Assembly (NCBI RefSeq): GCF_009831575.1
Contig: NZ_WUUT01000001.1
Span: forward strand, 333,345 to 397,344
Length of the DNA stretch: 64,000 nucleotides
Origin: Halovenus carboxidivorans
GTDB taxonomy: Archaea > Halobacteriota > Halobacteria > Halobacteriales > Haloarculaceae
Reading direction: 5' to 3'
Every line of letters starts with the position of its first letter. The first letter of the stretch is position 1. The notes under the pieces were generated by a model. That model was not told the origin of the DNA, did no database searches, and saw only the letters and a list, made by a program, of their open reading frames with translations. The position numbers and the translations under genes are program-made. Below, one piece after another: positions 50,453-64,000 of this stretch.

Positions 50453-51760
50453 ATGAGTGTTGACAAGCGACTCCACGACCGGAAGTTCGTGCGGACGTTT
50501 TTCACGACGCCGACGGCGGACAGCGAGAAAGATGACACCGCGGCGATGCTGAAGAAGTCGATCCAGCTCCGCGGGATGGAAGCGCCGGACGTGTGGGTTC
50601 CGGACAACGAGGACGCCACCGCGCCGAACATGCGCGACGAGGGGGCGGAGAACATCGCGGAAGTCGTCGCCGAGCACGGCGACGAGTTCCCCGGCGAGAT
50701 CCACCCCCGCGTCGTCTGGCACCGCGACAGCCCCGAGACACGCTACAAGGGCTTCCAGCACATGCTCGAGATTGCCGACCCCGAGAACGGCGCTGTCGAG
50801 AACATCGACGGCTTCGTCATTCCGGAAGTCGGCGACCTCGACGACTGGAAGAAAGCCGACGAGTTCATCACTATCGTCGAAAACGAGCACGGCCTCGAAG
50901 AGGGGAGCCTCGCGATGTCGGTGATCATCGAGAGCGGCACCGCCGAACTGGAGATGGGCCGTCTCCGCGACGAGATTGGCAAGCCCTCGAACAACCTCGA
51001 ACGGCTCTTCCTGCTGGTCGACGGCGAGGTCGACTACACGAAGGACATGCGCGCGATCACGCCGACCGGCGAACTGCCGGAGTGGCACGAACTGCGCCAC
51101 AACACCTCCCGAGCGGCGAGCGCGGCCGGCCTGATCGCCGTCGACGGTCCGTTCGACGACATCCGCGACGTTGCGGGCTACCGCGAGCGAATGACCGCGA
51201 ACCAGGCGGTCGGCCAGATCGGTATCTGGTCGCTGACCCCCGGCCAGGTCGTCGAGGCCAACAAGGCCCCGCTCCCGCCGAAGGAGGGCTACTGGCTCAT
51301 CGACGAGGACGGCGAGGAGGTCGAACTCGAAGACGAGGGCGACGTGCAGGCGTACACCGGCGACAAGCTTTCGCTGGAGGAGGACGGCGACGAGTACGTC
51401 CTCACCGTCGGTAGCGACGAACACGTCCTCAGCCACGAGGAACTACAGGAGAAACTGGTCGACCTGACCGCCTACGTCCCGAGCCTCGACGACATCGTCG
51501 ACTCCATGGAGGAGTTCGAGGCCGCCAAGGAGGCCGGCCAGGGCGCAATCGCCATGACCCGCGCGACGACCGTCAGCATCGACGGCGTCGAGGTCGAGAT
51601 TAGCTCCGACCGAATGTGGGACGAAGCGACCTACCAGGCCCTGCAGACGCCGATCACGCTGTTCCAGGACGTCTACGAGAACCGTCCCGACCAGCACGAC
51701 GACCTCGCCGACATCTACGGCGAAGACGTCGTCGAGCGAGCGATGGAAGTCGGCAACTAA
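50453..51760 (+). CDS. aceB: Malate synthase, haloarchaeal class H
   Basis: 435 residues from ATG 50453. Condenses glyoxylate and acetyl-CoA to malate in the glyoxylate cycle. Haloarchaeal AceB belongs to the HpcH/HpaI-like family rather than classes A or G: PDVWVPDNEDATAPNMRDEG, PGEIHPRVVWHRDSPETRY, DGFVIPEVGDLDDWKKADEF, IIESGTAELEMG, LLVDGEVDYTKDMRAITP. The C-terminal about 170 residues are helical and acidic. No isocitrate lyase gene is nearby in the window. Its product would be needed to use acetone-derived acetyl-CoA. Confidence 0.95.
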   Translation: MSVDKRLHDRKFVRTFFTTPTADSEKDDTAAMLKKSIQLRGMEAPDVWVPDNEDATAPNMRDEGAENIAEVVAEHGDEFPGEIHPRVVWHRDSPETRYKGFQHMLEIADPENGAVENIDGFVIPEVGDLDDWKKADEFITIVENEHGLEEGSLAMSVIIESGTAELEMGRLRDEIGKPSNNLERLFLLVDGEVDYTKDMRAITPTGELPEWHELRHNTSRAASAAGLIAVDGPFDDIRDVAGYRERMTANQAVGQIGIWSLTPGQVVEANKAPLPPKEGYWLIDEDGEEVELEDEGDVQAYTGDKLSLEEDGDEYVLTVGSDEHVLSHEELQEKLVDLTAYVPSLDDIVDSMEEFEAAKEAGQGAIAMTRATTVSIDGVEVEISSDRMWDEATYQALQTPITLFQDVYENRPDQHDDLADIYGEDVVERAMEVGN

Positions 51761-55395: not shown

Positions 55396-56949
55396 ATGGA
55401 GGGGGGAGAGGACAGCGAACTGCTCACGCTCGACAGGCTGTTCGAGTGTACGTTCGCACGGTACGGGGACCGACCGGCGATTCGACACGCCGGGGAGACG
55501 CTCAGTTACGCGGAACTCGACGAGCGCTCGCGTCGTTTCGCGGACGTCTACGCCGCGCTCGGCCTGACGGTCGACGACCGGGTGGGGATTCTCATGGACA
55601 ACAGACCGGAGTTCATCACCGCACACACCGGCGCGGTCCGCGCCGGGGTGCCGGTGGTCCCGCTGAACAAGAAACTTGACGACACGCAGGTGCGCGAGCT
55701 AGCACAGACCGGGACGATCGACGTACTGGTCGTCGGCGAGCGCTTCTTCGAGACGATCGAGGCGATACAACGCGAACGAAACGAGTTTCAGCACGTCATC
55801 GCACAGGCCGACGAGGAGCCGATCCCGGTCGGATTTCACGACCTCGAAGAGCTACTCGCGAGCGCGGACCCGGTGTTGCCGGAGCCGTCTCCATCCCCGG
55901 AGGATACGGCCGCCGTCTACTACACGAGCGGTACGACCGGCGACCCGAAAGGCGTCGTCCACACCCACCGGTCGCTGGCGCTGAACTGCTACGCGCACAC
56001 ACACGAGATGGAGATCAACCGCGGCGAGCAGATGCTGTTGACGACGCCGCTGTCACACTCGGCGGAACCGTTCGCGCGCGCTGGACTGACACAGGGCGCG
56101 ACGGTGGTCCTCCAGCAGGAGTTCGACAGCGAAACAGTTCTGGAGACGATCGAGCGCGAGGAGATCACGTGGACGTTCATGGTGCCGACGATGATCGCGG
56201 CCGTCGTCGAGGACGAACGCCTCTCCGAGACCGACACGGACTCCCTGGAGACGATCGCCTACGGCGCTGCGCCGATCCCGGACCCCATCCTCAAGCGCGG
56301 AGTCGAGCAGTTCGGACGGATCTTCCTCCAGTTCTACGGGCTCACCGAAGTTCCAAATCTCATCACGGTGTTGCCCAAAAGCGACCACGACCCCGAACAG
56401 GGGGCGCTCGAATCGGCCGGCTATCCGACGCAGTTGGTCGAGATCCGGCTGCTCGATATCGACGCGGAGTGGGCGACCGATGTCGGCGAAATCGCCGTCC
56501 GATCGCCGTACGCCCTCGCGGGCTACGTCGGCGAGCAGAGCGCGTACACCGACGACGGCTGGCTCAGAACCGGCGACGTCGGCCGGATCGAGGACGGCCG
56601 CGTCCACGTCCTCGACCGGATTCAGGACGTGATCGTCGTCGACGGCGAGCCGGTCTTCTCGACGACCGTCGAGAACGCGATCCAGCGCCACCCCGACGTG
56701 CGGCGGGTCGCGGTGATCGGCGTGCCCGAAAACGGGGCGGATACGCGGCGTTCGGAGGCGGTCGAACAGATCGTCAAGGCCGTCGTCGTTCCGGCGGACG
56801 ACGCCGAGATCACGCCCGAGAGTCTGCGGGATGTCTGCAGCGACTCCCTCGCGGACAGCCCGCTGCACTCTATCGACGTCGTCGGACAGTTGCCCGAGAC
56901 GCCGTACGGGAAAGTCGACAAGCAGGCGCTGCGAGATCCATACTGGTAG
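55396..56949 (+). CDS. AMP-forming acyl-CoA synthetase (ANL family)
   Basis: 517 residues from ATG 55396 (MEGGEDSELLTLDRLF); the GTG 55348 would add 16. Adenylation core motif VYYTSGTTGDPKGVVHTHRSLALN (A3), TFMVPTMIAAV and YGAAPIPDPILKRG (A4/A5 region), FLQFYGLTEVPNL, and GWLRTGDVGRIEDGRVHVLDR with the A7 Asp. C-terminal hinge/lysine region DVIVVDGEPVFSTTVE is degenerate; the usual catalytic Lys appears at GKVDKQ (C-terminal). In the same cluster as acetone carboxylase; acetoacetate could be its substrate, inferred. It is paralogous to the ligase at 62697. Confidence 0.92.
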   Translation: MEGGEDSELLTLDRLFECTFARYGDRPAIRHAGETLSYAELDERSRRFADVYAALGLTVDDRVGILMDNRPEFITAHTGAVRAGVPVVPLNKKLDDTQVRELAQTGTIDVLVVGERFFETIEAIQRERNEFQHVIAQADEEPIPVGFHDLEELLASADPVLPEPSPSPEDTAAVYYTSGTTGDPKGVVHTHRSLALNCYAHTHEMEINRGEQMLLTTPLSHSAEPFARAGLTQGATVVLQQEFDSETVLETIEREEITWTFMVPTMIAAVVEDERLSETDTDSLETIAYGAAPIPDPILKRGVEQFGRIFLQFYGLTEVPNLITVLPKSDHDPEQGALESAGYPTQLVEIRLLDIDAEWATDVGEIAVRSPYALAGYVGEQSAYTDDGWLRTGDVGRIEDGRVHVLDRIQDVIVVDGEPVFSTTVENAIQRHPDVRRVAVIGVPENGADTRRSEAVEQIVKAVVVPADDAEITPESLRDVCSDSLADSPLHSIDVVGQLPETPYGKVDKQALRDPYW

Positions 56950-56954
56950 CTGAC

Positions 56955-57647
56955 ATGCTCCGGATCACCTTCGAGACCGAACCCGGGGATCTGCTCGGGC
57001 GTCTCCACGACTCCCTCGACGGGGGTTCGACGATCCTCGACTCGGTGTTACAGACCGACCGGACGGAGTGGCTGGCGTATCTGACTGTCAGCGACCTCGA
57101 CAGCCCGCCGGTCGAACGCGTCCGGGAGCTTTCTGATCTCGAACTCGTCTACAGCGACTCCTACTCGGCGGCCTCCGACACCGCGCTCCTGCTGGTTCGG
57201 GTCCACGACGAACCCTGTATCGCCCGGCTACTCGCCGAGCACCGGGCGATCCCGCACGCGATTCGACTGCACGATCATCACCTCAGCGGTACCGTCACCG
57301 TCGACGACTGGGACCACCTCCAGACGATTGCCGACGAGATCGAAACCGCCCGGGACACCTTCGAGCTAGTCAGCGTCAGACAGGTCGACAGCGTCGAGCC
57401 GATTCTCGGCAGTGACCGCCTCAAACAGACTGCGAAGGGCGCGGTCCCGACCGAACACCTCCGGACGCTCGAAGTCGCCTACCGGACCGGCTACTTCGAC
57501 GTTCCACAGACCGCCTCCGCCGAGGAGGTGGCGGACGAACTGGGGGTGAGTCAGTCGACGTTCAGCAAACGGCTCCGCCGCTCGGCCGCCGCGCTCCTGG
57601 CGCTTCTGTTCGGCGAACAGCACCCGGGTGTCGCCGGGACGGACTGA
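56955..57647 (+). CDS. HTH_10 (Bat-type) regulator of the acetone carboxylase locus
   Basis: 230 residues from ATG 56955, six bases after the ligase stop. N-terminal sensor domain about residues 1-165 (LRITFETEPGDLLGRLHDSL, with DHHLSGTVTVDDW in the centre), C-terminal HTH_10: AVPTEHLRTLEVAYRTGYFDVPQ then EEVADELGVSQSTFSKRLRR (about residues 165-220). By position it is the likely regulator of the acx genes, replacing the sigma54 activator AcxR of proteobacteria. Activator or repressor is not known. It has no own clear promoter and likely shares the ligase transcript. Confidence 0.9.
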   Translation: MLRITFETEPGDLLGRLHDSLDGGSTILDSVLQTDRTEWLAYLTVSDLDSPPVERVRELSDLELVYSDSYSAASDTALLLVRVHDEPCIARLLAEHRAIPHAIRLHDHHLSGTVTVDDWDHLQTIADEIETARDTFELVSVRQVDSVEPILGSDRLKQTAKGAVPTEHLRTLEVAYRTGYFDVPQTASAEEVADELGVSQSTFSKRLRRSAAALLALLFGEQHPGVAGTD

Positions 57648-57734
57648 GTGCTGACGCGCTCGTTCCGTGGCGAGACAGCCGCTGTGTGACCGGGGTATTT
57701 CAATGAGAATATATATCGGCGGCTATCAGCGCAG

Positions 57735-57757
57735 TTGTCCATTATTATTAAGGACAA
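57735..57757. promoter_or_regulatory. Inverted repeat framing the acx TATA element
   Basis: TTGTCC (57735-57740), AT-only spacer ATTATTATTAA (57741-57751), GGACAA (57752-57757). The spacer holds a TATA-like TTATTAA about 39-46 bases before the start codon at 57790, so the repeat arms would flank the TATA. Transcription would start near 57775. Looks like an operator/activator site combined with the core promoter. A second candidate TATA (AATATATATC, 57709-57718) lies further upstream. Confidence 0.5.
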
Positions 57758-57789
57758 ATCGGCGGTGGGTTGGGACGTGAGGTGGTACC

Positions 57790-59943
57790 TTGTCATCAAC
57801 ACCCACATTCGATCCTGAGCTGTTGGCGCTGGACACAGGGGGGACAATGACGGACACGTTCGTCGTCGACGAGAACGGTGAGTACACCGTCGGAAAGGCA
57901 CAGACGACCCCGGAGTACGAGGCGGAAGGCGTCGTGAACTCCTTCCAGAACGCGCTGGGGTACTGGGATACGACCTTAGAGGAGTCGACCGACACCATCC
58001 GGGGGACGGTCTACTCCGGCACCGCGATGCTGAACCGCTTGCTCGAACGCGAGGGCGAGGGGGATATCGGCCTCATCACCAACAGAGGCTTCGAGGACAC
58101 CCACAGATTCGGTCGCGGTATCGAGTCGTGGGTCGACCTGCCTTACTCCGGGCGGCTTCACGCCCGCGAGCACGAACACCCCGAGCCGATCGTTCCGCGG
58201 GAGAACATCCGCGGCGTCCGCTCGCGGATCGACCATCTCGGCCAGGAGATGATTCCGCTGTACGAGGGGGAGGTCGAGGAGGCCGTCCACGACCTGCTGG
58301 ACCGGGACGTGCGGGTGATCTGCGTCTCGCTCGTCTACTCCTACCAGAATCCCGAACACGAGCAGCGCGTCCGGGAGATTGCGGAGGAGATCATCGACGA
58401 GCGCGGTGCGGACGTGCCGATCTGGCTGTCCAGCGAGCAGAATCCCGTCCGGGGGGAGCTACCGCGGGTGAACAGCCTCATCCTGGAGGCGTACGCGGTC
58501 GAACCGTCCCGCGAGCAACTGTACGGCATCCGCGACGAACTCGAAGCGGAGGGCGCCGACGCGCCGTTTCGGGTGCTCTCCTCCTCGGGCGGGACCGTCT
58601 CGCCGGACCACGACTGGCTGGTCGAGACGATGATCTCCGGACCGATCGGCGGCATCTTCGGCGGGGAGTTTCTCGCCGACAAACTGGGCATCGACAACCT
58701 CGTCTGCTCGGACGTCGGAGGGACCTCCTTCGATGTCGGGCTGATAACCGAGGGACACTACCCGACCCGCTGGGACCAGAGCCTCGCGCAGTTCATGGTC
58801 AACATCCCGATGACCGCGATGGACACCATCGGCTCCGGGACGGGCAGTTTCGTCCGGGTCGACCGCGCCTCCAATCGGCTGGAGGTCGGCCCCGACTCGG
58901 CGGGGTATCTGGTCGGCGTCGCCAACGAGGAGTCGGGGCTGGACACGCCGACGGTCACCGACTGTACGGCGATGCTCGGCTATCTCAACCCCGAGTACTT
59001 CCTCGGCGGGAAGATCGACCTCGACGTCGACCGCGCCCGGGAGTACATCGAGGATCAGGTCGCCGACCCGCTCGATCAGGACCCACACGAGACCGCTCGG
59101 GGCGTGCTCGACATCGTCGAGCGCAACATGACCAACGAACTGAACGCGATGATCCTCGGGCTGGGCTACTCGCCGGAGAACTACCACCTGACCTCCTACG
59201 GGGGCGGTGGACCGCTGCACGCCGCCGGCTACACGCAGTCGCTGGATTTCAAGGACGTGCTCATCCCCGACTGGGCGGCGGCGTTCTCGGCGTTTGGCTG
59301 TGCGACCGCCGACTACGCCTACCGGTACGACCGCTCGCTGGATCTGGTGCTCCAGCCGGATCTGAGCAACGCCGAACAGGTCGCGGCGGCGCTGACCGAC
59401 GCGCTGACCGACCTGCGCGAGCAGGCGGTCGCGGCCTTCGAGCGCGACGGCATCGACGCCGAGGAGATGGACTTCGTCCCCGCCCTGCGGATGCAGTACA
59501 CCGGGATGCTCGACGACCTCGAAGTGACTCTGCCCGGTGACATCTGGAACGGCGAGTTGGCGGCAGACGACCTCCCGGACGTCATCGACGTCTACGAGCG
59601 GGAGTTCGCTCGCGTCTTCCAGCGGGCGGCCCAGAGCCCCGAGCAGGGCTACACGATCACGATGGGCGTCGGCACCGGTATCGCGCCCTCGCCGAGTCCG
59701 GCGCTGCCGGAGGAAGAGCCCGGGGACGAGACGCCGCCGGAGGCCGCCGGCCGCGGCCACCGGGACATCTACTGGGACGGCGCGTGGCACGAGGCCGCGC
59801 TGTGGGAGATGAACGATCTGGAGGCCGGCAACGTCGTCGAGGGTCCCGCGGTCGTCGAGGCACCCGCGACGACGATGCTCGTCCCGCCGGGCTTCGAGGC
59901 ACCGCTCGACGAACACCGCATTTTCCACCTGGGTGAAACATGA
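57790..59943 (+). CDS. acxA: Acetone carboxylase beta subunit (HyuA-type)
   Basis: 717 residues from TTG 57790, with GAGGTGG as ribosome-binding site; the length matches that of known AcxA proteins. Hydantoinase A/oxoprolinase fold: N-terminal LALDTGGTMTDTFVVDENG (ATP-binding), SGTAMLNRLLEREGEGDIG, NRGFEDTHRFGRG, ISGPIGGIFGG, SDVGGTSFDVGL, GTGSFVRVDR, PDSAGYLVGV, YGGGGPLHAAGYTQSLDF, WAAAFSAFGCATADYAYRYD. The set GYLNPEYFLGG and HRIFHL at the C-terminus fits acetone carboxylase better than generic HyuA. Carboxylates acetone to acetoacetate with ATP to AMP; subunits alpha and gamma follow. Confidence 0.95.
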   Translation: MSSTPTFDPELLALDTGGTMTDTFVVDENGEYTVGKAQTTPEYEAEGVVNSFQNALGYWDTTLEESTDTIRGTVYSGTAMLNRLLEREGEGDIGLITNRGFEDTHRFGRGIESWVDLPYSGRLHAREHEHPEPIVPRENIRGVRSRIDHLGQEMIPLYEGEVEEAVHDLLDRDVRVICVSLVYSYQNPEHEQRVREIAEEIIDERGADVPIWLSSEQNPVRGELPRVNSLILEAYAVEPSREQLYGIRDELEAEGADAPFRVLSSSGGTVSPDHDWLVETMISGPIGGIFGGEFLADKLGIDNLVCSDVGGTSFDVGLITEGHYPTRWDQSLAQFMVNIPMTAMDTIGSGTGSFVRVDRASNRLEVGPDSAGYLVGVANEESGLDTPTVTDCTAMLGYLNPEYFLGGKIDLDVDRAREYIEDQVADPLDQDPHETARGVLDIVERNMTNELNAMILGLGYSPENYHLTSYGGGGPLHAAGYTQSLDFKDVLIPDWAAAFSAFGCATADYAYRYDRSLDLVLQPDLSNAEQVAAALTDALTDLREQAVAAFERDGIDAEEMDFVPALRMQYTGMLDDLEVTLPGDIWNGELAADDLPDVIDVYEREFARVFQRAAQSPEQGYTITMGVGTGIAPSPSPALPEEEPGDETPPEAAGRGHRDIYWDGAWHEAALWEMNDLEAGNVVEGPAVVEAPATTMLVPPGFEAPLDEHRIFHLGET

Positions 59944-62186
59944 GCAAACCTGCAGACACGTCCGATCGCACCGAACGCAACTTCGAGCAGGTCGACCCGC
60001 CGATCGGCTGGGACGGCCAGACGCTGTACGAGATGCTCGAACAGAGCGAACGACAGACCGAGGAGACCGGCCGGTACTGCGGGCTGGACGAACTGGAGAT
60101 GAAAGCGGAGGAGCCGTTCGAGTACGAACAGCTGTTCTCACAGCTCCGGGGGGCGCTGGTCAGCGCCCGCGAGACCGCACTGCACGTCTCGGCCTCACCG
60201 ATCGTCCGCGAAATCGGTGAGCTGTGTTTCCAGGTCTACACGCCCGAAGGGGACTGCGTGGCGCTGTCGACGGGGATCATCGTCCACGTCCACACCGGCA
60301 GCCTCGCGATCAAGTACATGATCGAGGAGGACTACGAACACGACCGCGGCATCCAGCCGGGCGATATCTTCTGTAACAACGACAACGACCTCGGCAACGT
60401 CCATACGACGGACGTTCACACTATCGTCCCCATCTTCGAGGACGGCGAACTGATCGCGTGGGTCGACGGCGTCACCCACCAGGTCGACATCGGCGGGATG
60501 ACCCGCGGCCACGACCAGCTGGCGAGCACGACCCGCTTCGAGGACGGCCTGTACGCCACCTGCGAGAAGATCGGAGAGAACGACAAGATCTACCAGGACT
60601 GGCGTGACCGCTGCCAGCGGTCGGTCCGCACGCCGATGTACTGGGACCTCGACGAGAAGTGCCGGCTCGCGGGCTGTCACATGATCCGCGAGGCCATCAA
60701 GGAGATGGTCGACGACGTCGGGGCGGACCGGTTCAAACAGTTCATGCGCGAGGCCGTCGAGGAGGGCCGCCAGACGCTGCACTCCCGCGTCGAGGAACGG
60801 CTGTTCCCCGGCACCTACCGCGATAGTTCGTTCATGCCGGTCCCCTTCGAGGACGAAGCCTGGAAGCCGCAGGCGAAACAGGACATGCTGAACCACCTCC
60901 CCGTCGAGGTCGAAATCGACGCCGACGGCGGCATCGAGTTCGACATGGAGGGCGCGAGCCCACCCGGACCGCACGCCTACAACTGCGCCGAAGGCGCGAT
61001 GGAGGGCGGCCTGTGGGTGTCGCTCACGCAGTGTTTGCTCCACGACGGGAAGGTAAACGACGGCTCCTACCTCGCGGTCGATACCAACTACCCCGAGGGG
61101 AGCATCGTCAACCCGCAGGACCCGAGCCTCTCCTATCACACCTCCTGGGGGTCGCTGATGCCGACGTACAACGCCTTCTGGAAGAACGTCTCCCGCGGTT
61201 TCTTCGCGCGGGGCTTCCGGGAGGAGGTCGTCACGGGCTACTCCGAGACCGGCGACCCGCTGCAGGGCGGCGGGAAGTACGAGGTCACCGACGAGTACTT
61301 CCCCGTCTCGCCGTTCGAGCACTCCTGTCAGGGGCTGGGCGCGAGCGCCGTCCGGGACGGGCTGGATCACGGCTACGCGATGTGGAATCCCGAAAGCGAC
61401 ATGGGCGACGTCGAGGAGTGGGAACTCATCGAGTGGGGGTTGCCCTTCCTCGCTCGCCAGATGAAACCGGACACCGCCGGCCACGGCAAGTACCGCGGTG
61501 GCTCCGGCTGGGAAGGGATCCGGATGGTCAACAACAGCGCCGACGTTTCGCTGTACAAACACGTCGTGCCGGGCGTCGGCTTCACCACCTCCGGGATGTC
61601 CGGCGGCTACCCCAACGCGACGAACTACTCGCTGCGGGCCCACGATACCGACATCCAAGAGCGCTTCGAGAACCGCGACCCGTACCCGGTCGGGGACTCC
61701 CCGAGCGGCGAGTTCGACGAGCACATCGACGGCGACATCCGCCGCAGCGAGAAGGGGCTGTACTTCCCGGAGGAGTACGAGAACTACGACCTGGTCCACT
61801 ACCAGATGGGCGGCGGCCCCGGCTACGGGGACCCGCTGGACCGACCCGTCGAGAAGATCAAAGAAGACGTCGAGGAGGGTATCTACACCCCCGAGACGGT
61901 CGAGAGCGTCTACGGCGTCGTCGGCGAGTTCGACGAGGACGACCGCGAGTTCACGGTCGACGAGGACGCCACCGAGCGCGCCCGCGACCGACTCATGGAG
62001 GAGCGCCGCGAGGAGGCCGTCGACTACGAGGAGTTCTACGAGTCCGAGCGCGAGCGCGTCAGCGAGGGCGACGTGAGCGAACCCGCTCAGTGGATGTACG
62101 AGGGCGTGTTCGACATCTCCGAGGAGTGGGCCGAATCGTTCCGCGACTTCTGGGAACTGCCTGCCGAGTTCACCTTCGAGGAATAA
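59940..62186 (+). CDS. acxB: Acetone carboxylase alpha subunit (HyuB-type)
   Basis: 748 residues, ATG 59940 overlapping the acxA stop by 4 (ATGA), as expected for stoichiometric subunits. Sequence signatures: LYEMLEQSERQTEETGRYCGL, RGALVSARETALHVSASPIV, PEGDCVALSTGIIVHVHTGS, GDIFCNNDNDLGNVHTTDVHT (metal-binding Asp/His region), GVTHQVDIGGMT, CHMIREAI, GKYRGGSGWEG, GGYPNATNYS. The fold is the hydantoinase B metal-binding subunit (Mn/Fe in the bacterial enzyme). Slightly shorter than bacterial AcxB (about 770). Confidence 0.96.
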   Translation: MSKPADTSDRTERNFEQVDPPIGWDGQTLYEMLEQSERQTEETGRYCGLDELEMKAEEPFEYEQLFSQLRGALVSARETALHVSASPIVREIGELCFQVYTPEGDCVALSTGIIVHVHTGSLAIKYMIEEDYEHDRGIQPGDIFCNNDNDLGNVHTTDVHTIVPIFEDGELIAWVDGVTHQVDIGGMTRGHDQLASTTRFEDGLYATCEKIGENDKIYQDWRDRCQRSVRTPMYWDLDEKCRLAGCHMIREAIKEMVDDVGADRFKQFMREAVEEGRQTLHSRVEERLFPGTYRDSSFMPVPFEDEAWKPQAKQDMLNHLPVEVEIDADGGIEFDMEGASPPGPHAYNCAEGAMEGGLWVSLTQCLLHDGKVNDGSYLAVDTNYPEGSIVNPQDPSLSYHTSWGSLMPTYNAFWKNVSRGFFARGFREEVVTGYSETGDPLQGGGKYEVTDEYFPVSPFEHSCQGLGASAVRDGLDHGYAMWNPESDMGDVEEWELIEWGLPFLARQMKPDTAGHGKYRGGSGWEGIRMVNNSADVSLYKHVVPGVGFTTSGMSGGYPNATNYSLRAHDTDIQERFENRDPYPVGDSPSGEFDEHIDGDIRRSEKGLYFPEEYENYDLVHYQMGGGPGYGDPLDRPVEKIKEDVEEGIYTPETVESVYGVVGEFDEDDREFTVDEDATERARDRLMEERREEAVDYEEFYESERERVSEGDVSEPAQWMYEGVFDISEEWAESFRDFWELPAEFTFEE

Positions 62187-62188
62187 CT

Positions 62189-62689
62189 ATGTCGACAGAC
62201 ACCACACAGATCGAGAAACTCATCGACGGCGAACTGTCCTGGGAGGAGCTACGCAACGACGTTCTCCCGGACCCGAAGGATCCGGACCGCTTCGAGACGA
62301 CCAGACAGATCCTCCAGGAAAAAGTCGAGTTCGACGAGCCGATTCTCGTCCCGTTGAACGACCACCTCTTCGCGGTCGGCACAGAGGACGGCCGCGTCGT
62401 CAAAGGCGAGTGCGGCCACGAGTTCGGCCCGCTGGCGGACAACTGGAAGGAGTACTGCAAGGTCCGGGTCCGCGAGGACGAATCGGAGATGCGCGAGCTG
62501 TATCCGGAGAACATGACGCCCGAGCCGGACTGGCAGTTCCAGCTCCGGGAGTTCTTCTGCCCGGAGTGTTTCACGCTGATCGATGTCGACGCCGTTCCGG
62601 CGGGCTATCCAGTGCTGAAACCGTTCGACCCGGACATCGACGCCTTCTACGAGGAGTGGGAGGACAGGACGCCGCCGGACAGGGAGTAA
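62189..62689 (+). CDS. acxC: Acetone carboxylase gamma subunit
   Basis: 166 residues, close to the 168 of the bacterial gamma subunit. C-terminal region with LREFFCPECFTLIDVDAVPAGYP and FDPDIDAFYEEWED fits the family. Cys pair CPEC and ECGHEFG (N-terminal His-Glu) may bind metal. ATG 62189 is two bases after the acxB stop. Presence of all three subunits in the order beta-alpha-gamma equals the bacterial acxABC operon. Small structural subunit, function not well known. Confidence 0.95.
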   Translation: MSTDTTQIEKLIDGELSWEELRNDVLPDPKDPDRFETTRQILQEKVEFDEPILVPLNDHLFAVGTEDGRVVKGECGHEFGPLADNWKEYCKVRVREDESEMRELYPENMTPEPDWQFQLREFFCPECFTLIDVDAVPAGYPVLKPFDPDIDAFYEEWEDRTPPDRE

Positions 62690-62696
62690 CGCGACG

Positions 62697-64000
62697 ATGG
62701 CTTCGCACACACTCACGGCCGCAGACACGGCCGCGGACGCAGTGACGTTGCGAGCGCTCTTCGAGGCCGCCCTCGACAAGTACGCCGAACGTGACGCGAT
62801 CACGGTCGACGGCGAGACGGCCACCTACGCCGAACTCGACCGCCGCGCCAACGCCGTCGCCCACGGCCTCGTCGAGCGCGGTGTCGAGCGGGAGGACCGG
62901 GTCGCGTTGCTCATGTCCAACCGCCTGGAGTTCGTCATCGCCGACCTGGCGCTGTGCAAGGCCGGGGCGACCCGACTCCCGCTGAACGACATGCTCACCG
63001 CCGAGGAGTTCCGGTATATGCTCGACGACGCCGGGGCCGGAACGGTCGTCGCCGGCCCGCAGTTCGTCGAGACGGTCGCCGACCTCGCCGGAGAGCTTCC
63101 GGAACTGGAGACGGTAATCGGCGTCAGCGACGGCCCATCGCTCCCGGAGGGCGTCGAGGCCTTCGATGCGCTGGACGGCTCGGCGGTCGATCCGCCCCAG
63201 CGTCCGGTCGACGGCGACCACATTCAGGGCCACTACTACACCGGCGGCACGACTGGCAAGCCCAAAGGCGTCTTGCAGACCCACGAGTCGATGGCGCTGA
63301 ACCAGTACGCCCACATCGCGGAACTCGGCGTCTCGGGCGACGAGACGCTGCTGTTGCTGACGCCGCTGCCGCACTCGGCGGGGTTGTTCCTCTGGGCAGG
63401 ACTGCTGACCGGTGCCCACGCGATCATCGAGGAGGAGTTCGAGCCGGGAACCGCGTTGCACGCCATCGAGGACCACGGTGTGACGTGGACGTTCATGGTG
63501 CCGACGATGATCTATCGGCTGCTCGATCACGACGCGCTCGACTCGACGGACACCTCGTCGCTGTCGACGCTGGTCTACGGTGCCGCCCCGATGACGCCGG
63601 CCCGACTGCGCGAGGGGATCGACGCTTTCGGTCCGGTCTTTCTGCAGTTTTACGGCCAGACCGAGGTGCCAAATCTCATCACCACCTTCGGGAAGCAAGA
63701 ACACGCCCGGGCCGTCGAATCGGGGCCGGAGGAGCGGCTGAGTTCCGCCGGCACGGTCTGTCTCACCTCCGAGGTGAAAATCGTCGATATCCAGACCGGC
63801 GAGGAACTCCCGCCCGGCGAGGAGGGGGAGATCCTCGCGACGGCACCGTACGCGATGGAGGAGTACTTCCAGCGGCCGGAGAAGACCGCCGAGACGATCA
63901 CCGACGGCTGGGTCCACACCGGCGACGTCGGCAAGCGCGACGAGGACGGCTACGTCTACCTGCTCGACCGCGAGAGCGACGTGATTATCACCGGCGGAAT
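62697..64000 (+). CDS. AMP-forming acyl-CoA ligase (cut by the window end)
   Basis: About 434 codons visible from ATG 62697, 7 bases after acxC; the 3' end is outside the window. Motifs: HYYTGGTTGKPKGVLQTHESMALN (A3), TFMVPTMIYRL, YGAAPMTPARLREG, FLQFYGQTEVPNL, ILATAPYAMEEYF, TDGWVHTGDVGKRDEDGYVYLLDR (A7). Paralogous to the ligase at 55396 (same VPTMI and QFYGxTEVPNLIT motifs). By location it probably activates acetoacetate made by acetone carboxylase; medium-chain or other acids are alternatives. Confidence 0.93.
   Translation, partial: MASHTLTAADTAADAVTLRALFEAALDKYAERDAITVDGETATYAELDRRANAVAHGLVERGVEREDRVALLMSNRLEFVIADLALCKAGATRLPLNDMLTAEEFRYMLDDAGAGTVVAGPQFVETVADLAGELPELETVIGVSDGPSLPEGVEAFDALDGSAVDPPQRPVDGDHIQGHYYTGGTTGKPKGVLQTHESMALNQYAHIAELGVSGDETLLLLTPLPHSAGLFLWAGLLTGAHAIIEEEFEPGTALHAIEDHGVTWTFMVPTMIYRLLDHDALDSTDTSSLSTLVYGAAPMTPARLREGIDAFGPVFLQFYGQTEVPNLITTFGKQEHARAVESGPEERLSSAGTVCLTSEVKIVDIQTGEELPPGEEGEILATAPYAMEEYFQRPEKTAETITDGWVHTGDVGKRDEDGYVYLLDRESDVIITGG

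What the first reader, a model, noticed from the sequence alone, without database searches (positions are those of the whole stretch)
55396..64000. Complete archaeal acetone carboxylase module with a Bat-type regulator and two AMP ligases
The sequence shows acxA-acxB-acxC in the bacterial order with family-wide motifs, tight overlaps, and subunit lengths close to the bacterial ones (717, 748, 166). The bacterial operon is controlled by the sigma54 activator AcxR; here an HTH_10 regulator and an ANL ligase stand immediately upstream and another ligase follows. Established knowledge: acetone carboxylase makes acetoacetate at the expense of ATP to AMP. Inference: the ligases supply acetoacetyl-CoA, so the cluster is a self-contained acetone catabolic module in a haloarchaeon, with malate synthase elsewhere in the window closing the glyoxylate route.
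Basis: partly seen in the sequence, partly recalled or inferred. Interest (0 to 1): 0.8.

Follow-up and report, generated by a model that had tools for sequence, protein, structure and literature searches.

The report
Second haloarchaeal ketone carboxylase gene module
A salt-loving archaeon carries a complete gene set for an enzyme that fixes bicarbonate onto a small ketone, with its own regulator and CoA ligases, but it belongs to an uncharacterised sister branch of acetone carboxylase, and the same genome holds a closer acetone carboxylase relative elsewhere, so acetone as the substrate is plausible but unproven.

Summary
Intact, tightly packed ANL1–HTH_10–acxA–acxB–acxC–ANL2 genes lie at window 55396–64000; ANL2 runs on 295 bases past the window. 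All three subunits match Xanthobacter acetone carboxylase nearly full length and far better than acetophenone carboxylase or hydantoinase. The catalytic metal ligands are conserved.

The same genome has a second acxABC cluster about 150 kb upstream. That one, not the window copy, groups with characterised bacterial acetone carboxylase (100/100 and 100/99 in the two subunit trees). The window copy falls in a separate, uncharacterised archaeal clade; forcing it into either group is rejected (p about 1e-9). It has a swapped inter-subunit latch (αGlu85–βAsn578 becomes Arg–Asp, no mixed pair in 47) and lacks two of four tryptophans near the metal.

The ligases are not acetoacetyl-CoA synthetases by family model, but form one clade with the ligases beside other haloarchaeal acx clusters, apart from every other sampled ligase, which supports a dedicated role on the carboxylase product.

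The module is patchy in haloarchaea. It is best read as a short-chain ketone carboxylation module: a new variant of a known kind, with the exact ketone open.

The parts
55396..56949 (+). ANL1: AMP-dependent acyl-CoA ligase of the acx-associated clade, with altered hinge motif (DGEP in place of GGMN)
   Evidence: Pfam AMP-binding 248.9 bits; clade; motifs
56955..57647 (+). HTH_10/BAT transcriptional regulator, 230 aa, no other domain found
   Evidence: Pfam HTH_10 53.8 and BAT 36.6 bits, both over cut-off; an HTH_10 gene directly upstream of acxA in four other window-type loci
57708..57717 (.). AATATATATC, promoter/operator-like element upstream of acxA
   Evidence: Near-identical element in three other HTH_10-bearing window-type loci; 1 match in window, 0.20 expected. 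Function inferred; motif chosen after inspection
57735..57757 (.). Perfect inverted repeat TTGTCC-N11-GGACAA, possible operator or 5' leader structure
   Evidence: 0.06 expected at up to 1 mismatch; not seen in the relatives' upstream regions printed
57790..59943 (+). acxA: ATP-binding (kinase-type) subunit, beta in XaAC naming, 717 aa
   Evidence: 690.8 bits to 5svb_B over residues 10-716; Phe404 = XaAC beta Phe405, Asp575 = beta Asn578
59940..62186 (+). acxB: metal-site subunit, alpha in XaAC naming, 748 aa
   Evidence: 620.4 bits to 5m45_A over 25-747; metal ligands His155, Asp158, His180, Glu94 conserved; Arg90 = XaAC Glu85; Tyr410 = W408; Pro440 = W438
62189..62689 (+). acxC: gamma subunit, 166 aa, three of four zinc cysteines
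   Evidence: Pfam Acetone_carb_G 119.1 bits; 140.6 bits to 5m45_C; Cys74 position is Gly
62697..64000 (+). ANL2: AMP-dependent acyl-CoA ligase of the acx-associated clade, 532 aa; continues 295 bases past the window (L005:12041-13639)
   Evidence: Pfam AMP-binding 271 bits; full gene; clade

Best explanation
The cluster encodes an ATP-dependent carboxylase for a short-chain aliphatic ketone, acetone or a close relative such as butanone. AcxA phosphorylates the ketone enol and bicarbonate with ATP; the activated intermediates pass to a divalent-metal site in AcxB (His155, Asp158, His180, Glu94), where the C-C bond forms and gives a beta-keto acid; AcxC completes the complex. ANL2, and possibly ANL1, turns the beta-keto acid into its CoA ester, which a thiolase would cleave to acetyl-CoA plus an acyl-CoA. 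The HTH_10 protein regulates the operon from a promoter just upstream of acxA. Shown here: subunits, order, conserved catalytic residues, phylogeny, dedicated ligase clade, conserved synteny, shared upstream elements. Inferred: the reaction, the substrate, the ligase step, the thiolase step and the regulation. The module belongs to a distinct archaeal clade beside, not inside, the clade of characterised acetone carboxylases.
For: Near full-length matches to acetone carboxylase; Acetone_carb_G subunit; metal ligands and the nucleotide-stacking Phe conserved in the window-type sequences; gene order of bacterial Acx operons; both trees place it in the Acx branch away from Apc and hydantoinase; acx-linked ligases form one exclusive clade; in G365 the ANL1-HTH_10 cassette stands before a type-A carboxylase, suggesting both types serve related chemistry; no PF01144 CoA-transferase in the genome; a CoA ligase in the Apc operon is a precedent (PMC5214803).
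Against: No member of the window-type clade has been characterised. The latch pair and two tryptophans near the metal differ from the characterised enzymes. The ligases do not match the acetoacetyl-CoA synthetase model and resemble fatty-acyl and feruloyl CoA ligases most among solved structures. Some window-type loci have no ligase beside them (L081, L013, L014).
Confidence: 0.75

Rival explanations
1. It is simply a second acetone carboxylase: same substrate and product as the bacterial enzyme, differing only in expression, metal or affinity.
For: Same subunits, order and catalytic ligands; sister ligases serve both cluster types; the ANL1-HTH_10 cassette occurs with both carboxylase types. 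Two characterised acetone carboxylases of 68% identity already differ in metal, Mn or Fe (PMC10865871).
Against: The genome already holds a closer orthologue of bacterial acetone carboxylase, and two enzymes for one substrate need a reason. Residues near the metal site differ.
Confidence: 0.42
2. It is a specialised paralogue for a ketone other than acetone (for example butanone, a longer methyl ketone or acetoin), while cluster 2 handles acetone.
For: Separate clade by both subunits; W408 to Tyr/Phe and W438 to small residues near the metal; two paralogous modules with separate regulators and different upstream elements in one genome; in G386 the module is preceded by 2-oxoacid-dehydrogenase-type E1 genes and a butanediol-dehydrogenase-like SDR.
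Against: No direct substrate evidence. The altered residues are shared with distant bacterial relatives and may be the ancestral state. The G386 neighbours are not conserved elsewhere. A known acetone carboxylase also takes butanone (title of the Aromatoleum study cited in PMC5214803), so specificity may be broad.
Confidence: 0.33
3. It is not a ketone carboxylase but a hydantoinase, oxoprolinase or lactamase-type enzyme, or an acetophenone carboxylase.
For: Same superfamily; NCBIfam acetophenone carboxylase and caprolactamase models match, all far below cut-off.
Against: An Acx-type gamma subunit is present; no second kinase-type subunit and no apcABCD order; the trees separate it with full support from Apc rows, and this genome's own hydantoinase is far away.
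Confidence: 0.06

Closest known systems
Acetone carboxylase AcxABC of Xanthobacter autotrophicus Py2 (PDB 5m45, 5svb, 5svc)
   Same: Three subunits, gene order, subunit sizes, metal ligands, nucleotide-stacking Phe; matches over nearly the full length of each subunit.
   Different: Window type lies in another clade; latch pair Glu-Asn replaced by Arg-Asp; W408 and W438 replaced; one zinc Cys lost; HTH_10 regulator instead of a sigma-54 activator; CoA ligases in the operon.
Haloarchaeal type-A acx clusters (own genome L006; Natronorubrum aibiense L093; Halococcus dombrowskii L094)
   Same: Haloarchaeal; acxABC with an HTH_10 gene and usually an ANL ligase of the same ligase clade.
   Different: Only about 46% identical per subunit; group with the bacterial enzyme; usually carry a second acxB; different upstream element; regulator downstream of acxC rather than upstream of acxA in most.
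Acetophenone carboxylase of Aromatoleum aromaticum (PDB 5l9w)
   Same: Same superfamily; ATP-dependent ketone carboxylation; its operon contains the CoA ligase for the product (PMC5214803).
   Different: Second kinase-type subunit, gene order apcABCD(E), much lower similarity (AcxB 160 against 620 bits).

Membership tests
Acetone carboxylase (Acx) | Three genes in the order acxA-acxB-acxC (criterion of PMC5214803) | tested here: met
   criterion
Acetone carboxylase (Acx) | Metal ligands alpha His150, Asp153, His175, Glu89 (PMC5543143) | tested here: met
   Identical in 12 of 12 window-type sequences
Acetone carboxylase (Acx) | Nucleotide-stacking beta Phe405 | tested here: met
   Phe in the window-type AcxA rows
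Acetone carboxylase (Acx) | Inter-subunit contact alpha Glu85 - beta Asn578 | tested here: not met
   Arg and Asp in the window type; 47 comparable pairs, none mixed
Acetone carboxylase (Acx) | Four zinc cysteines in gamma (Cys74, 76, 124, 127) | tested here: not met
   Cys74 is Gly, other three kept; also incomplete in bacterial Martelella and Cereibacter copies, so not strictly defining
Acetone carboxylase (Acx) | Groups with a characterised acetone carboxylase | tested here: not met
   Outside the clade of XaAC plus type A; joining rejected, p-AU 1.6e-9
Acetone carboxylase (Acx) | Acetone- and bicarbonate-dependent acetoacetate formation with ATP to AMP | not testable with these tools
   Needs enzyme assay
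Acetophenone carboxylase (Apc) | Second kinase-type subunit and order apcABCD(E), or grouping with Apc in trees | tested here: not met
   No extra subunit gene in the cluster; far from Apc rows in trees
Hydantoinase/oxoprolinase (HyuAB) | Two subunits only, no gamma subunit; grouping with hydantoinases | tested here: not met
   Gamma present; hydantoinase row far away
Acetoacetyl-CoA synthetase (TIGR01217), for the ligases | Score over the curated cut-off of 520.9 bits | tested here: not met
   No ORF of the genome reaches it; ANL1 region 26.4 bits
Bat-type regulator | HTH_10 and BAT domains | tested here: met
   53.8 and 36.6 bits, both over cut-off
Bat-type regulator | PAS/GAF sensor domains of full-length Bat (own knowledge) | tested here: not met
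   No other Pfam domain in 230 aa

The most novel reading that the evidence does not exclude
The window type is a distinct archaeal subfamily of ketone carboxylase with a charge-swapped inter-subunit latch and a remodelled metal vestibule. It acts on a ketone other than acetone and is wired with a dedicated pair of ligases, one of which (ANL1, altered CoA-binding hinge, always beside the HTH_10 gene) might sense the product rather than make its CoA ester.
Probability: 0.25. Interest if true: 0.6.

Novelty: new variant of a known kind. Interest (0 to 1): 0.45.

Why it matters
The open-access library searched gave no paper that couples acetone carboxylase with haloarchaea, although databases already annotate the gamma subunit in some of these genomes. 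In the genomes sampled, Acetone_carb_G genes occur in 37 of 391 haloarchaeal genomes, with two acx types plus an acetophenone-carboxylase-like type. That makes ketone carboxylation testable as an overlooked carbon route in hypersaline systems. The latch pair that differs consistently between the two enzyme clades gives a tractable handle on how this family couples its ATP site to a metal site about 40 angstroms away.

Tried and rejected
Placement with hydantoinase or acetophenone carboxylase: rejected by the trees. One clade of all haloarchaeal Acx, or window type plus bacterial Acx: rejected by AU tests, with the caveat that the groups were named after the tree was seen. Ligases as classical acetoacetyl-CoA synthetase: not met. 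CoA-transferase route as beside the Ancylobacter operon: no PF01144 match in this genome. A shared flanking gene that would reveal the substrate: flanks beyond the module differ among window-type loci, apart from a sulfur-transferase-like gene near the L009, L013, L014 and L081 copies. GACATATGTC as the window's upstream element: fits type A, not the window type. Both upstream motifs were spotted by eye before counting, so the counts are descriptive only. Several first calls failed on coordinates or limits and were repeated or dropped. Structure prediction was not run: sequence matches to solved complexes were already nearly full length, and coordinates would not have been available for comparing pockets.
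Full report
WHAT IS THERE. Between window 55396 and the window end lie six co-directional genes: ANL1 (55396-56949), an HTH_10 regulator (56955-57647), acxA (57790-59943), acxB (59940-62186), acxC (62189-62689) and ANL2 (62697 onward, finishing 295 bases past the window). The gaps are 5, 142, -4, 2 and 7 bases; the 142-base gap before acxA is the only one large enough for a promoter. There are no internal stops. GC (0.64-0.68) is that of the surroundings.

HOMOLOGY. All three subunits align over nearly their full length with Xanthobacter acetone carboxylase (XaAC): AcxA 691 bits, AcxB 620, AcxC 141. Acetophenone carboxylase scores 367, 160 and 29. AcxC passes the Pfam Acetone_carb_G cut-off. 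No NCBIfam model passes its cut-off for any of the three.

A SECOND CLUSTER IN THE SAME GENOME. Hydantoinase_B is found four times in the genome: an ordinary hydantoinase on contig C7, the window copy, and two copies on the window's own contig about 150 kb upstream of it. The latter lie in acxA-acxB-acxC-ANL-HTH_10-(132-aa gene)-acxB2. The two clusters are only about 46% identical in each carboxylase subunit.

PHYLOGENY. Trees of AcxB (36 rows) and AcxA (38 rows) agree. Bacterial acetone carboxylases and the haloarchaeal cluster-2 type ('type A') form one clade (bootstrap/SH-aLRT 100/100 and 100/99). The window type forms another (100/100 in both), with a non-haloarchaeal family of the same phylum as its sister (100/99 and 98/94). 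Chloroflexota and Planctomycetota sequences lie outside both. Forcing the window type together with type A, or with the bacterial enzymes, is rejected (AU p about 1.6e-9 each; groups named after seeing the tree, and long branches are present). Apc rows and hydantoinases are far away. So the window copy is an enzyme of the ketone-carboxylase branch, but not of the clade with known substrate. The only characterised acetone carboxylase in the trees is XaAC; the other plasmid-borne bacterial rows are its close relatives.

RESIDUES. In XaAC numbering (PMC5543143; PMC10865871), the metal ligands alpha His150, Asp153, His175 and Glu89 are identical in all 12 window-type sequences, and beta Phe405 is conserved. 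The contact alpha Glu85 - beta Asn578, whose loss on nucleotide binding opens access to the metal, is Glu-Asn in every bacterial and type-A pair and Arg-Asp or Arg-Glu in the others: 30 and 17 of 47 comparable pairs, none mixed. Because it follows one deep split it may be a single evolutionary event; it shows co-inheritance and a plausible retained interaction, not repeated co-evolution. Of four tryptophans described near the metal, W401 is kept in all 12 and W479 in 10 of 12, while W408 is Tyr or Phe and W438 is Pro, Thr, Ala or Ser. One zinc cysteine of gamma is lost in the window copy and several relatives; some bacterial enzymes lack more.

DISTRIBUTION AND SYNTENY. PF08882 occurs in 37 of 391 haloarchaeal genomes. 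Window-type AcxB (68% identity or more) occurs in 7 of 391 counting the window's own genome, one of them with two copies, and in named Halorientalis salina, H. regularis and halophilic-archaeon MAGs. None of five congeners in that sample has AcxC, and the nearest copy (84%) is in another family, which suggests horizontal transfer. The order ANL1-HTH_10-acxA-acxB-acxC-ANL2 recurs in G386, G251 and G287; J07HX64 keeps HTH_10-acxABC-ANL2 with interrupted acxA and ANL2 frames. Halorientalis has acxABC-ANL2 plus another ligase, behind an IclR gene. One subclade has acxABC without ligases.

LIGASES. Of 19 AMP-binding enzymes in this genome, the three acx-linked ones group with the core acx-linked ligases of other genomes in one clade of 19 rows (SH-aLRT 100, quick method) that excludes the other ligases sampled from this genome and its relatives. 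ANL2 and the type-A ligase keep the standard motifs. The ANL1 subgroup has GGMN changed to DGEP or similar in the hinge, and one member lacks the A10 lysine. No ORF in the genome passes the acetoacetyl-CoA synthetase cut-off. The closest solved structures are FadD8-type and feruloyl-CoA-type ligases. The inference that the ligases act on the carboxylase product rests on their exclusive association with acx, the absence of a PF01144 CoA-transferase, and the precedent of benzoylacetate-CoA ligase in the Apc operon (PMC5214803).

REGULATION. Four HTH_10-bearing window-type loci (window, L079, L080, L082) have a GATATATATC-like element shortly after a TATA-like stretch upstream of acxA: the only match of its quality in the locus in three, and one of two in the fourth. 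Most of 14 type-A loci have AACATATGTC in the equivalent place. The fifth HTH_10-bearing locus, L008, and the loci without an adjacent HTH_10 gene lack a good match. In G365 the ANL1-HTH_10 cassette stands before a type-A carboxylase. Separate regulators with separate operators is an inference. Bacterial operons retrieved here have a sigma-54 regulator upstream.

CENTRAL METABOLISM. Haloarchaeal malate synthase is at 50453-51760. Isocitrate-lyase/PEP-mutase family genes exist elsewhere in the genome, but none passes an isocitrate lyase equivalog cut-off. The glyoxylate link is possible, not shown. Thiolase was not searched for.

LITERATURE. Weidenweber et al. (PMC5214803) define Acx by the acxABC order and tree position, and warn that no consensus of the substrate site separates family members and that function of distant relatives should be assigned with caution. 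That caution applies here.

VERDICT. 'Acetone catabolic module' should be weakened to 'ATP-dependent short-chain ketone carboxylation module of a distinct archaeal clade'. Acetone is a little more likely than any other single ketone, but not established.

Noticed in passing
L006:9027-11549 and L006:15467-17980 (own genome, contig C1); also L085, L086, L087, L090, L094, L100, L114, L115: Type-A haloarchaeal acx clusters carry two acxB genes (about 81-84% identical) kept as separate lineages in many genomes: two possible metal-site subunits for one acxA and acxC.
   Followed up: partly
L006:15008-15406: A 132-aa protein with no Pfam match sits between the HTH_10 gene and acxB2 in many type-A clusters.
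   Followed up: partly
L093:9108-9530 (Natronorubrum aibiense); also L084, L087, L090, L115: A methylmalonyl-CoA-epimerase-like VOC gene (TIGR03081 93.9 bits, below the 114.95 cut-off) follows the ligase in type-A clusters, which would fit butanone giving propionyl-CoA.
   Followed up: partly
L079:16122-18931 (G386): Co-directional E1-alpha, E1-beta (2-oxoacid or acetoin dehydrogenase type) and a butanediol-dehydrogenase-like SDR gene lie directly upstream of the window-type module in this genome only.
   Followed up: partly
L091 (G017), L092 (G254), L070-L073: Some haloarchaea carry acetophenone-carboxylase-like clusters: two kinase-type subunits, a short gamma subunit and a beta subunit.
   Followed up: partly
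L094:5136-6188 (Halococcus dombrowskii plasmid): An NAD(P)-dependent alcohol dehydrogenase gene lies just upstream of the type-A acx cluster, as a zinc alcohol dehydrogenase follows acxC in Martelella; this fits an isopropanol-to-acetone step.
   Followed up: no
window 57735-57757: Perfect inverted repeat TTGTCC-N11-GGACAA between the regulator and acxA, not evident in relatives.
   Followed up: partly
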